From Gammaproteobacteria bacterium (GTDB lineage Bacteria > Pseudomonadota > Gammaproteobacteria > HK1), in NCBI GenBank assembly GCA_022824305.1, contig JAJEAD010000089.1, positions 105,756 through 169,755 of the forward strand: 64,000 nt of DNA, read 5' to 3'. Numbering within the stretch: the first letter of the stretch is position 1; each line of letters opens with the position of its first letter. Shown in pieces: positions 52,145 to 55,242 of the stretch. The notes below the pieces were generated by a model, which saw only the letters and a program-made list of their open reading frames with translations, did no database searches and was not told where the DNA came from. A program made the translations under genes and the position numbers.

Positions 52145-53986
52145 GTGGAGACTTCGTCCGAATTCGACCCTCAGGCATTCCTGTCCACACTCACGGGAGG
52201 TCCCGGGGTATACCGGATGCTGGACGGCGAGCGGCGGGTGCTCTATGTCGGCAAGGCGCGCAGCCTGAGCAAGCGTGTCGCCAGCTACTTCCGCTCCGCG
52301 GCGCAGCTCGAGCCCAAGACTCGGGTGCTGATGTCCCAGGTCGCCTCGGTCGAGATCACCGCGACCCACACCGAGGGCGAGGCGCTGCTGCTCGAGAACA
52401 GCCTGATAAAGGAGCACCAGCCGCGCTACAACATCCTGCTGCGCGACGACAAGAGCTTTCCCTACATCCACATCTCGACCGAGCAGTCCTTCCCCCGCCT
52501 GGCCTTTCACCGGGGAGCGCGCAACCGGGCCGGGCGCTTCTTCGGACCCTTCGCGAGCGCCGGTGCGACCCGCGACACCCTGAACCTGCTGCAGAAGCTG
52601 TTTCAGGTCCGGCAGTGCGAGGACACCTTCTACCGCAATCGCTCCCGCCCCTGTCTTCAGTATCAGATCAAGCGCTGCACCGCCCCCTGCGTGGGGCTGG
52701 TGGATGCGGAGCGCTACCAGGAGGACGTCCGCCACGTCATCATGTTCCTCGAGGGCAAGAGCGAGGAGATGATCGAGGAGCTGGTCGGGCGGATGGAGGC
52801 GGCTTCGGGCCGCCTCGAGTTCGAGCTCGCGAGCCGCTACCGGGACCAGATCGCGAGTCTGCGCAGAGTGCAGGCGCGCCAGCACGTCATCGGCGCCCGG
52901 GGCGATGCCGACGTCGTCGCGTCCTGCGTGCGTGACGGTGTCGCGGTGGTGCAGTTGACCCTCATTCGCAACGGCCAGAGCCTGGGAAGCCGGACCCTGC
53001 TGCCCCGCCAGGCGGCGAACGCCTCGGAGCGTGAGGTGCTGGATGCCTTTCTGTCCCAGTACTACCTGTCCCGGGCGGGCCGGCAGGGCATTCCTCCCCA
53101 GATCCTGGTGAGCGAGCCCGTCGACTCGCTGGACCTGCTTGCCGGCGCGCTGAGCGAGCGGGCGGGGCGGCGGGTGAGCCTTCGCCACCCGCTTCGGGGC
53201 GAGCGCGCCCGCTGGATCGAAATGACCCGGCAGAACGCCGAGCTCGCGGTGGCGCAGCGCCTGGCCGAAGAGGCGAGCCTGCGCGGCCGATTCGAGGCGC
53301 TGCAGGACTTCCTCGAGTTCGACGAAGTGCCGGGCCGCATCGAGTGCTTCGACATCAGCCATACTGCGGGGGAAGCGGCGGTGGCGTCCTGCGTGGTGTT
53401 CGCGCCTACCGGCGCGCTCAAGGCGGAGTACCGGAGGTTCAACATCAGCGACGTCGAGCCCGGAGACGACTACGCGGCGCTCAAGGACGCCGTCCGTCGC
53501 CGATACACGAGAGTGCAGCGCGAGGAGGGGAGGGTGCCGGACCTGATCATGATCGACGGAGGAAGAGGTCAGCTCGCGGTGGCGCAGGAGGTGCTGGAAG
53601 AGCTGCAGCTCGATGAGGTTCCCATCCTCGCGGTGGCCAAGGGCAGCGCGCGCAAGGCGGGGCTGGAGAGCATCCACCTCGGAGGAAGAGGGCGCCCGCT
53701 CGCGCTGCCCGATTCCTCCCCCGAATTGCACCTCATCCAGCAGATCCGCGATGAGGCACACCGTTTCGCCATAGCCGGCCACCGGGCCCGGCGCGGCAGG
53801 AAGCGCAACACTTCGGTCCTGGAGCAGATATCGGGCATCGGGGCGAAGCGACGCCAGCGCCTCCTGAGCGAGTTCGGGGGCTTGCGGGCGCTGTCGCGCG
53901 CGGGGGTCGAGGACCTGGCCCGGGTGAACGGCATCAGCCGCACGCTCGCCCGGGCGATCTACGACGCATTCCGGGACGGGCCGTGA
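52145..53986 (+). CDS. uvrC: Excinuclease ABC subunit C
   Basis: UvrC makes both incisions in nucleotide excision repair. The 613 residues comprise the GIY-YIG domain (GVYRMLDGERRVLYVGKARS), the KSFPYIHISTEQSFPRL region, the Cys-rich KRCTAPCVGLVD segment, a UVR motif (EFELASRYRDQIASLRRVQ), the RNase H-like endonuclease (IECFDISHTAGEAAVASCVV, LIMIDGGRGQLAVAQ) and the C-terminal tandem HhH (QISGIGAKRRQRLLSEFGG). The start is GTG 52145. The 259-bp gap before it has an AT-rich stretch with a 13-bp palindrome ATAAGGTCCTTAT (51906-51918) just after the regulator gene. Confidence 0.97.
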   Translation: METSSEFDPQAFLSTLTGGPGVYRMLDGERRVLYVGKARSLSKRVASYFRSAAQLEPKTRVLMSQVASVEITATHTEGEALLLENSLIKEHQPRYNILLRDDKSFPYIHISTEQSFPRLAFHRGARNRAGRFFGPFASAGATRDTLNLLQKLFQVRQCEDTFYRNRSRPCLQYQIKRCTAPCVGLVDAERYQEDVRHVIMFLEGKSEEMIEELVGRMEAASGRLEFELASRYRDQIASLRRVQARQHVIGARGDADVVASCVRDGVAVVQLTLIRNGQSLGSRTLLPRQAANASEREVLDAFLSQYYLSRAGRQGIPPQILVSEPVDSLDLLAGALSERAGRRVSLRHPLRGERARWIEMTRQNAELAVAQRLAEEASLRGRFEALQDFLEFDEVPGRIECFDISHTAGEAAVASCVVFAPTGALKAEYRRFNISDVEPGDDYAALKDAVRRRYTRVQREEGRVPDLIMIDGGRGQLAVAQEVLEELQLDEVPILAVAKGSARKAGLESIHLGGRGRPLALPDSSPELHLIQQIRDEAHRFAIAGHRARRGRKRNTSVLEQISGIGAKRRQRLLSEFGGLRALSRAGVEDLARVNGISRTLARAIYDAFRDGP

Positions 53987-54597
53987 ACCTCCCCAACGCA
54001 CTGACCCTGGCGAGGATTCTGCTGATCCCGGTGTTCGTGGTGGTGTTCTTTCTGCCCGCGGAAGGGGCCCGCGCCGCCGCCGCTCTCCTCTTCGGCGCGG
54101 CCGCCTGCACCGACTGGCTCGACGGGTACCTGGCGCGGCGCCTCAATCAGACCTCGAGGTTCGGCGCCTTTCTGGATCCGGTGGCCGACAAGCTGATGGT
54201 CTGCACCGTCCTCGTGCTCCTGGTGCAGGCCGACCCGCGCGTCCTGCTCGCGGTGCCGGCGCTGGTGATCATCGGCCGGGAGCTCGCGGTGTCCGCTCTG
54301 CGCGAGTTCATGGCCGAGATCGGCCAGCGCACCACGGTGGCGGTGGCCACGCTGGGGAAGGTGAAGACCATCGCACAGATGGTGGCCCTCGTTCTCATGC
54401 TCTACCGCGACCCCGTCGTCGGGATTCCGGTGTACCAGTCCGGGCTGGCGCTGCTCTATCTCGCGGTGGTGCTGACCCTGTGGTCGATGCTCATCTACCT
54501 GCGCGCCGCGTGGCCGCTGCTGGCGCCCTTTGCCACCTCGCTTGACACCCCAAAGGCGCCTACTAGAATACAAAACGCCCCGAACAGGGGAGAGTGA
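53983..54597 (+). CDS. pgsA: CDP-diacylglycerol-glycerol-3-phosphate 3-phosphatidyltransferase
   Basis: PgsA makes phosphatidylglycerophosphate, the first step to PG and cardiolipin. The 204-residue membrane protein starts at GTG 53983 overlapping the uvrC stop (GTGA) and opens NLPNALTLARILLIPVFVVV. The CDP-alcohol phosphatidyltransferase motif (D-G-x2-A-R-x8-G-x3-D-x3-D) appears as DWLDGYLARRLNQTSRFGAF with LDPVADKLM. tRNA genes follow immediately, as in E. coli. Confidence 0.97.
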   Translation: MNLPNALTLARILLIPVFVVVFFLPAEGARAAAALLFGAAACTDWLDGYLARRLNQTSRFGAFLDPVADKLMVCTVLVLLVQADPRVLLAVPALVIIGRELAVSALREFMAEIGQRTTVAVATLGKVKTIAQMVALVLMLYRDPVVGIPVYQSGLALLYLAVVLTLWSMLIYLRAAWPLLAPFATSLDTPKAPTRIQNAPNRGE

Positions 54598-54608: not shown

Positions 54609-54684
<76 letters not shown>

Positions 54685-54722: not shown

Positions 54723-54796
54723 GGCTGGGTGGCAGAGTGGTCATGCAGCGGCCTGCAAAGCCGTGGACGCCGGTTCGATTCCGACCCCAGCCTCCA
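54723..54796 (+). tRNA. tRNA-Cys (anticodon GCA)
   Basis: GGCTGGG pairs with CCCAGCC, with encoded TCCA end. The anticodon loop CTGCAAA gives GCA, and the T arm reads CCGGTTCGATTCCGA. The 74-nt gene corresponds to cysT in the conserved pgsA-tRNA cluster. Confidence 0.97.
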
Positions 54797-54911: not shown

Positions 54912-55242
54912 GCCCGGATGGCGGAACAGGTAGACGCAGCGGACTCTTTTGGGTCCCCGGCGGGGAAACCTGCCGGTGAAAAGGGGTCAAATTCGGGGAA
55001 GCCTCAACAGCCCGGCTGCTGGTAATCCCGAGCTAAGCCTCGAGGCGGTCGCCGCGGCAGCCGCCCGAGGAAAGTGTAGAGACTAGACGGCCCCTGCCTA
55101 AGTGCGCGAAGCGCGTATGGCAAAGGGATAGTCCAGACCACAAATGCGCCCGGCGGCAGCCTCGGCGCAGTAGCGAAAGCTATAGTGGTACGTAAAATCC
55201 GCTGGCCGAAAGGCCGTGCCGGTTCGATCCCGGCTCCGGGCA
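54912..55242 (+). tRNA. tRNA-Leu (anticodon UAA), interrupted by a group I intron
   Basis: The 5' exon (54912-54945) is GCCCGGATGGCGGAACAGG followed by the D-arm end and anticodon 5' strand GCGGACT. The 3' exon (55193-55242) is TAAAATCCGC, a long variable arm TGGCCGAAAGGCCGT, T arm GCCGGTTCGATCCCGGC and TCCGGGC with discriminator A. Joining them restores a GCGGA/TCCGC anticodon stem and loop CTTAAAA, hence anticodon UAA. The intron sits between U33 and U34. CCA is not encoded here (A is followed by CTC), unlike the other three tRNAs. It holds the leuZ position of E. coli. Confidence 0.92.
54946..55192 (+). ncRNA. Group I self-splicing intron in tRNA-Leu(UAA)
   Basis: The 247-nt insertion has the landmarks of small tRNA introns of the Azoarcus type. 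P1: exon GGACU pairs with internal guide GGUCC (54952-54956), with a U.G pair at the splice site and a 6-base loop. P2: CCGGCGGG-GAAA-CCTGCCGG. Core: GTCAAATTCGGGGAAGCCT, AATCCCGAGCTAAGCCTCG (P4-P6), GTAGAGACTAGACGG and GATAGTCC (P7, with P8 between). P9: TAGC-GAAA-GCTA. The last intron base is G (55192). Both GAAA-capped helices match the tetraloop layout of the Azoarcus ribozyme. There is no homing endonuclease frame. Self-splicing is inferred. Confidence 0.88.

What the first reader, a model, noticed from the sequence alone, without database searches (positions are those of the whole stretch)
54912..55242. Group I intron in the anticodon loop of tRNA-Leu(UAA)
The sequence shows two tRNA-Leu exons separated by 247 nt. 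Removing 54946-55192 restores a perfect anticodon stem and loop CTTAAAA. P1 pairs exon GGACU with intron GGUCC with a U.G at the splice site, P2 and P9 carry GAAA tetraloops, the core contains AGACTAGACGG and ATAGTCC, and the intron ends in G. The core wording is close to the Azoarcus tRNA-Ile(CAU) intron known from the literature, but the host here is tRNA-Leu(UAA), the host best known from cyanobacteria and plastids, and the insertion falls between U33 and U34. A self-splicing intron in the leuZ position of the pgsA-glyW-cysT-leuZ cluster is unusual for this group.
Basis: partly seen in the sequence, partly recalled or inferred. Interest (0 to 1): 0.9.

Follow-up and report, generated by a model that had tools for sequence, protein, structure and literature searches.

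The report
Self-splicing intron in leucine tRNA gene
A bacterial leucine-tRNA gene is split inside its anticodon loop by an RNA that very probably cuts itself out; related introns were found in many genomes of this bacterial class, but here the cut sits one nucleotide away from the usual place.

Summary
At 54912-55242 a tRNA-Leu(UAA) gene is split after U33 by a 247-nt group I intron (54946-55192). The core helices are all present and show compensatory changes across relatives. Rfam's group I model scores 34.8 bits (E 3.5e-7 on 601 bases), below its cut-off of 50, so intron and tRNA are missed at standard cut-offs.

A covariance model built here finds related introns in 71 of 369 genomes of the class; by my reading 25 of these have one in this same tRNA, after U34. 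Thiomargarita and Beggiatoa were already reported with putative ones.

What looks new is the site. In 7 of 17 genomes of the window's family, plus one further MAG, the intron lies after U33. These eight form one clade in the full-intron tree, not in the weaker core tree. Their P1 is 6 bp and overlaps the anticodon stem, against about 3 bp at U34. Splicing itself is inferred.

Side finding: phage contigs and one cultured phage carry the U34 intron; two HNH-like proteins in phage copies are 50-56% identical to four in bacterial copies.

The parts
54912..54945 (+). tRNA-Leu(UAA) 5' exon, ending at U33
   Evidence: ARAGORN intron mode; intron-less orthologues
54946..55192 (+). group I intron, 247 nt, ends in G (omega G)
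55193..55242 (+). tRNA-Leu(UAA) 3' exon, U34 to A73; CCA not encoded
54941..54956 (+). P1: exon GGACU(+C1) with internal guide GGGUCC (54951-54956), U33.G at the 5' splice site
   Evidence: invariant in the 7 aligned U33 introns; hairpin -8.0 kcal/mol
54957..54976 (+). P2, 8 bp with GAAA tetraloop (54965-54968)
   Evidence: 4 of 8 pairs with changes on both sides
54983..54988 (+). P3 5' strand (partner about 55089-55094)
54993..55031 (+). P4 (54993-54997/55027-55031) with P5 and P5a
   Evidence: these pairs hardly vary
55032..55075 (+). P6 (55032-55033/55074-55075) and P6a (55038-55042/55066-55070); site of an ORF in some other introns
   Evidence: P6a 4 of 5 pairs with double changes; ORF position
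55081..55085 (+). P7 5' strand GACUA (partner UAGUC 55129-55133), the G-binding pseudoknot
   Evidence: 2 of 5 pairs with double changes across A1; invariant in A3
55095..55122 (+). P8 with CCUAAG...UAUGG, the 11-nt GAAA-receptor motif (motif recalled)
55137..55189 (+). P9 (55137-55141/55185-55189) with side hairpin 55170-55183 bearing GAAA
   Evidence: the other side helix (P9a) is not supported
54609..54684 (+). tRNA-Gly(GCC)
54723..54796 (+). tRNA-Cys(GCA)
53983..54597 (+). CDP-alcohol phosphatidyltransferase (pgsA-like)
   Evidence: PF01066 E 1e-39
52145..53986 (+). uvrC-like gene
   Evidence: PF08459 E 1.6e-54

Best explanation
[quoted passage not shown] Inferred mechanism: the intron's internal guide (GGGUCC) pairs with the last five exon bases to form P1 with U33.G. 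A guanosine bound in P7 cuts after U33. The freed U33 attacks after the last G of the intron and the exons join, giving the anticodon UAA. The intron descends from the U34 type that is widespread in tRNA-Leu(UAA) of this phylum. In one lineage the splice site moved one base upstream and the guide was rewritten, so that a strong 6-bp P1 replaces a weak one of about 3 bp. This P1 uses bases 29-31 of the anticodon stem, so that stem can close fully only as splicing proceeds. Shown: anatomy, covariation, empty sites, one clade in the full-intron tree. Inferred: splicing, direction of the shift, role of P1.
For: RF00028 E 3.5e-7 over the locus. Spliced exons make tRNA-Leu(UAA). Core covariation: 98.5% of cells paired, 11 of 34 pairs with double changes including two in P7, 0 of 500 shuffles. 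Full-length U33 set: 94.5% of cells paired, 13 of 62 pairs with double changes, 0 of 500 shuffles. Presence in 7 and an intron-less gene in 8 of 17 family genomes. Eight U33 introns form one clade, 98/92, in a tree of 57 introns with their own P1 and 3'-end bases left out. The six best-scoring relatives of the window intron outside the U33 set are U34 tRNA-Leu introns. P1 hairpin -7.3 to -8.3 kcal/mol in 8 of 8 U33 introns; 0 to -2.9 in 17 of 18 U34 introns (rough). No intron-less tRNA-Leu(UAA) found by pattern in six intron-bearing relatives.
Against: RF00028 is under its cut-off and a search of the own genome with it found nothing at E 0.001. No RNA data. The window's gene lacks an encoded CCA. 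A second UAA-anticodon tRNA exists on C78. UUA is nearly absent from the ORFs counted, so loss of this tRNA might be tolerated. One proposed side helix (P9a) is paired in only 25% of cells. In the core-only tree the U33 introns are not one clade: L095 falls apart from the other seven, among U34 and phage introns, with weak support. In the full-intron tree the place of the U33 clade among U34 introns is unresolved and the bootstrap had not settled.
Confidence: 0.9

Rival explanations
1. A dead or decaying intron-bearing gene: the insertion is no longer removed, and the second UAA tRNA on C78, or near-absence of UUA codons, makes the gene dispensable.
For: CCA not encoded (CTC), while 40 of 43 other tRNA genes encode it; second UAA-anticodon tRNA; 2 UUA in 17,761 codons of crude ORFs, chosen for high GC3.
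Against: Every proposed core helix is intact in the window's copy. Seven family genomes in three genera have the intron. The C78 tRNA lacks a long variable arm and was not found in the other 16 family genomes. Six intron-bearing relatives show no intron-less gene by pattern. A nucleotidyltransferase gene of the CCA/poly(A) family is present.
Confidence: 0.06
2. A group I intron as described, but the U33 site came from a separate insertion (reverse splicing or homing, perhaps from a phage copy) rather than a one-base shift of a resident U34 intron.
For: The link of the U33 clade to U34 introns is unresolved, and in the core tree the U33 introns do not even hold together. Phage contigs carry related tRNA-Leu introns. 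The family is patchy: 7 with, 8 without. L098 (family f47) also ends before U34 but lies outside the clade.
Against: Same gene, neighbouring phosphodiester bond, and the best-scoring relatives outside the U33 set are U34 tRNA-Leu introns of the same class.
Confidence: 0.25
3. Not a ribozyme: a spacer removed by proteins (archaeal bulge-helix-bulge type) or an assembly artefact.
For: None found beyond the sub-threshold Rfam score.
Against: RF00028 E 3.5e-7; P3/P7 covariation; the same structure in seven family assemblies, two of them single-contig.
Confidence: 0.01

Closest known systems
tRNA-Leu(TAA) and tRNA-Arg(TCT) introns of Thiomargarita nelsonii and BOGUAY Beggiatoa (PMC4853749, passages seen)
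   Same: Same host tRNA; put forward there as putative group I introns; Gammaproteobacteria (recalled)
   Different: Type and secondary structure not determined there; insertion position not seen in the passages; the window's intron is after U33
U34-type tRNA-Leu(UAA) introns of Pseudomonadota (found here)
   Same: Same tRNA, 13 of 25 class loci with the Gly and Cys tRNAs called nearby; the six nearest are 81-85% identical over aligned bases
   Different: Insertion after U34; P1 of about 3 bp (CUU/GAG); some encode an HNH-like protein in P6
Cyanobacterial and plastid tRNA-Leu(UAA) introns (named in PMC4033280, passages seen)
   Same: Same tRNA; same subgroup (recalled)
   Different: Recalled as inserted after U34; not compared here by sequence
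Azoarcus tRNA-Ile(CAU) intron (recalled)
   Same: Core wording nearly the same (recalled)
   Different: Inserted after the anticodon in another tRNA (recalled); loci I read as Ile2(CAU)-type form a separate clade

Membership tests
Group I intron (Rfam RF00028) | Score at or above the curated cut-off | tested here: not met
   34.8 against 50 bits; 0 of 8 U33 loci pass, and 6 of 20 loci given, so the cut-off itself loses introns of this kind
Group I intron (Rfam RF00028) | Full-length, statistically significant match to the model | tested here: met
   E 3.5e-7 on 601 bases, model 1-253
Group I intron (Rfam RF00028) | P3-P8 core with the P7 pseudoknot, supported by covariation | tested here: met
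   (P3, P6a, P7, P8); within the U33 set alone P7 does not vary
[quoted passage not shown]
   8 of 8 U33 introns
Group I intron (Rfam RF00028) | Guanosine-initiated self-splicing | not testable with these tools
   needs in-vitro transcription
IC3-like bacterial tRNA introns | Small core, GAAA loops in P2 and P9, tetraloop receptor in P8 | tested here: inconclusive
   CCUAAG...UAUGG at 55097-55120 and both GAAA loops are present; the subgroup rules are recalled and no reference IC3 set was compared
tRNA-Leu(UAA) intron of the U34 type | Insertion between U34 and A35 | tested here: not met
   insertion between U33 and U34; after U34 in the 25 class loci read as that type
Homing (mobile) intron | Endonuclease ORF | tested here: not met
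   no ORF of 70 aa or more inside the window's intron

The most novel reading that the evidence does not exclude
Phages are the vehicle that moves endonuclease-carrying tRNA-Leu(UAA) group I introns among Pseudomonadota. In the window's lineage the resident intron, having lost its endonuclease, moved its splice site one base upstream by rewriting its guide sequence. It thereby turned tRNA maturation into a switch in which P1 and the anticodon stem exclude each other.
Probability: 0.35. Interest if true: 0.7.

Novelty: new variant of a known kind. Interest (0 to 1): 0.5.

Why it matters
A one-base move of a splice site with a rewritten guide, next to many relatives at the old site, gives a natural comparison for how group I introns change target. 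The survey suggests that some genomes that seem to lack tRNA-Leu(UAA), tRNA-Arg or tRNA-Ile2 carry introns that Rfam's cut-off and ordinary tRNA searches miss. Intron-split tRNA genes in phages, if they splice, contradict the 2014 review statement (PMC3984707, passages) that all phage introns seen to date lie in protein-coding genes, and they offer a transfer route.

Tried and rejected
Twin ribozymes: several introns of about 690 nt gave two covariance-model hits. I first took them for tandem introns, but reading them shows one core split by an insert in P6, so this was rejected.

ARAGORN labels: loci called tRNA-Gln(CTG) read GACTCAT|...|AATCCC, that is CAU with the intron after it (Ile2-like). 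L065, L080 and L120 (called Phe, Ser, Phe) are tRNA-Leu(UAA) at U34 after a shift of 1-2 bases. L101 is called Leu(UAA) by ARAGORN but its exons read like another tRNA, and it is not counted. These are my readings. Eight of 96 loci got no intron call (L069, L076, L097, L150, L153-L156) and were not counted.

G004's model hit is in tRNA-Arg(CCU), not Leu, so it is not counted as U33. L098 (f47) ends before U34, but its P1 has a mismatch by my reading and it lies outside the clade; it is left open and not counted.

Core tree: 85 of 100 aligned matches; here the U33 introns are not one clade, since L095 sits apart from the other seven among U34 and phage introns with weak support. The full-intron tree (57 introns, 8 of them phage, long or ORF-bearing ones mostly left out) has them as one clade; I rely on it because it uses more columns (194 against 133), but its bootstrap had not settled.

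PgsA tree: too short to resolve whether the intron was gained once or lost repeatedly in the family.

P10: the window's UUUUG (54947-54951) could pair with UAAAA of the 3' exon; I do not see it in the other U33 introns, so it is not used as evidence.

P1 energies are rough: in L072 and L077 the script took an early GAG as the guide, and in L070, L080 and L102 the predicted fold is not CUU/GAG; L065 (-7.7) has an extra hairpin.

Literature: ten searches in an open-access library. In what I saw of them (listings, and passages of seven papers: and none for the rest) there was no description of a U33 site or of phage tRNA group I introns. Most subscription papers are not held, so this is weak.

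Full report
What is there. The window is part of a 4.98-Mb, 101-contig assembly. Reading along the + strand: a uvrC-like gene, a CDP-alcohol phosphatidyltransferase gene (pgsA-like), tRNA-Gly(GCC), tRNA-Cys(GCA), then a tRNA-Leu(UAA) gene split by 247 bases. The exons 54912-54945 and 55193-55242, joined, give a complete tRNA-Leu(UAA) with a long variable arm. The split is after U33. The 5' exon ends GGACU, the intron begins C and ends G, and the 3' exon begins UAAAAUCC.

Is it a group I intron? Rfam's model spans the locus from position 1 to 253 at 34.8 bits, E 3.5e-7 on 601 bases, under the cut-off of 50. I aligned the cores (P3-P8) of eight such introns and counted a structure with the P7 pseudoknot: 98.5% of cells paired, 11 of 34 pairs with changes on both sides (in P3, P6a, P7, P8 and the helix above P8), 0 of 500 shuffles as good; sliding the partners by 1-3 columns drops pairing to 27-47%. 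For seven full-length introns of the window's own type: 94.5% paired, 13 of 62 pairs with double changes, 0 of 500 shuffles. One side helix (P9a) failed (25%). P1, P4, P5, P6 and P7 do not vary within the seven and so say nothing there.

Who has it? In the window's family (17 genomes held, which are also the whole order held) seven carry the intron in tRNA-Leu: G000, G001, G003, G008, G012, G015, G016. Eight have the gene without an intron: G002, G005, G006, G009, G010, G013, G014 and G007. In G004 and G011 the gene was not found; G004's model hit is in tRNA-Arg(CCU). A pattern for the U33 type over named bacterial and archaeal genomes gave 15 stretches, of which 7 match the covariance model and read as U33-split tRNA-Leu. 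By their titles or NCBI lineage (for HK1) these seven are Gammaproteobacteria or Thiotrichales: six look the same as family members above (Thiotrichales CAR2_bin_14, Thioalkalivibrio sp. HK1, SH-MAG129, jk18x1bzbins.85, OY282378, OY282353) and one is further (SuakinDeep_MAG79_4, family not known).

How unusual is it? A covariance model of the core (R1; the window's intron and two others of the class draw were among the eight it was built from) finds matches in 71 of 369 genomes drawn from the class at E 0.001 or better and in 41 of 398 of a phylum draw. Of the 96 loci taken from the class and family searches, ARAGORN gives an intron-split tRNA in 88. By my reading of the junctions 25 class loci, from 22 families, are tRNA-Leu(UAA) split after U34; the window's own and the unclear L098 are the only others in this tRNA. 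Others are tRNA-Arg(UCU), Arg(CCU), Ile2-like (CAU) and a scatter of further tRNAs. In the phylum draw all 28 newly fetched loci (of 47 places) have ARAGORN intron calls and none reads as U33. [quoted passage not shown] The tRNAscan-SE 2.0 paper tells of 36 genomes whose fMet or Ile2 tRNA was missing because of such introns (PMC8450103, passages); the review PMC4033280 (passages) lists cyanobacteria, alpha- and beta-proteobacteria only.

What is different here: the site and P1. U34 introns pair CUU of the exon with GAG, about 3 bp. The eight U33 introns (seven of the family and SuakinDeep_MAG79_4) pair GGACU plus the first intron base with GGGUCC, 6 bp, hairpin energy -7.3 to -8.3 kcal/mol in 8 of 8, against 0 to -2.9 in 17 of 18 U34 introns (rough, see Tried and rejected). 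By tRNA numbering this P1 uses bases 29-31, three of the five anticodon-stem pairs, so the two helices compete. In a tree of 57 introns from which the first 18 and last 6 bases were removed, the eight U33 introns are one clade (98/92), inside a larger set with the U34 and Arg(UCU) introns and away from the Ile2-like ones; the bootstrap had not settled. In a core-only tree they are not one clade: L095 sits apart with weak support. In pairwise alignments six U33 introns score best against the window's intron, followed by four U34 tRNA-Leu introns and then the seventh U33 intron, L096, which carries long inserts. The simplest history is a one-base shift of a resident U34 intron; a separate insertion is not excluded.

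Is it used? In six intron-bearing relatives a pattern for the intron-less gene with up to three mismatches finds only a CAA-type match in five and nothing in one. In the window's genome the list of 43 plain tRNA genes has one other UAA anticodon, on 20-kb contig C78. It lacks the long variable arm and was not found in the other 16 family genomes. UUA is almost absent (2 of 17,761 codons in 42 crude ORFs of the window chosen for high GC3), so demand looks low. The window's gene has CTC where CCA would be, while 40 of 43 others encode CCA; a nucleotidyltransferase of the CCA/poly(A) family is present. These points leave room for decay but do not show it.

Blind spot. Of 20 loci with introns given to Rfam at its own cut-offs, the intron was found in 6, in none of the 8 U33 ones, and no intron-split tRNA was reported as tRNA.

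Phages. The U34 pattern in viral contigs gave 23 stretches, 15 with an R1 match; a core pattern gave 8, all with R1 matches; one contig is in both. Of the 30 contigs ARAGORN, with its labels re-read, gives a split tRNA-Leu(UAA) in 18, two pairs of which look alike. Among cultured phages, Agrobacterium phage Atu_ph07 has a tRNA-Leu(UAA) with a 278-nt U34 intron and Gordonia phage Daredevil a tRNA-Lys(UUU) with a 238-nt intron; no tRNA is annotated there in either record. In Klebsiella phage Muenster ARAGORN found no split tRNA in the stretch read, and the Rhizobium phage match lies between two parts of a ribonucleoside reductase gene. Two phage tRNA-Leu introns (L187, L210) encode HNH-like proteins 50-56% identical to those of four bacterial tRNA-Leu introns (L112, L116, L121, L130), all antisense to the tRNA, in the bacterial ones inside P6 (the Pfam HNH scores of the three tested are below the curated cut-offs). 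The review PMC3984707 (passages) says that phage introns observed to date were in protein-coding genes.

Verdict. A real, very probably active group I intron; a new variant (U33 site, long P1) of a kind that is more common than the papers seen here suggest. Interest 0.5.

Noticed in passing
L187, L210 (viral contigs), L219 (Agrobacterium phage Atu_ph07): Phage tRNA-Leu(UAA) genes split by U34 group I introns; L187 and L210 encode HNH-like proteins inside the intron, 50-56% identical to those in four bacterial tRNA-Leu introns.
   Followed up: partly
L218 1449-1760: Gordonia phage Daredevil: tRNA-Lys(UUU) split by a 238-nt intron, no tRNA annotated there.
   Followed up: partly
L207 5401-7261: One viral contig with three intron-split tRNA genes in a row (called Leu, Met, Arg).
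   Followed up: no
L141, L152: tRNA-Arg(UCU) introns with an ORF that in L141 matches PD-(D/E)XK endonuclease PF11645, E 7.4e-40.
   Followed up: partly
[quoted passage not shown]
   Followed up: no
L098 (G062, C1): tRNA-Leu(UAA) intron that also ends before U34 but lies outside the U33 clade and has an imperfect P1 by my reading.
   Followed up: partly
L027 1501-1577 (G000:C78:2579-2655): A second tRNA with a UAA anticodon, without a long variable arm, found in this genome only among the 17 of its family.
   Followed up: partly
L096 / L177: In G001 / Thioalkalivibrio sp. HK1 the U33 intron is 468 nt, with long inserts near P6, P8 and P9; its longest inner ORF is 106 aa and was not searched.
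   Followed up: no
whole window: UUA codons nearly absent: 2 of 17,761 codons in 42 crude ORFs chosen for high GC3.
   Followed up: no
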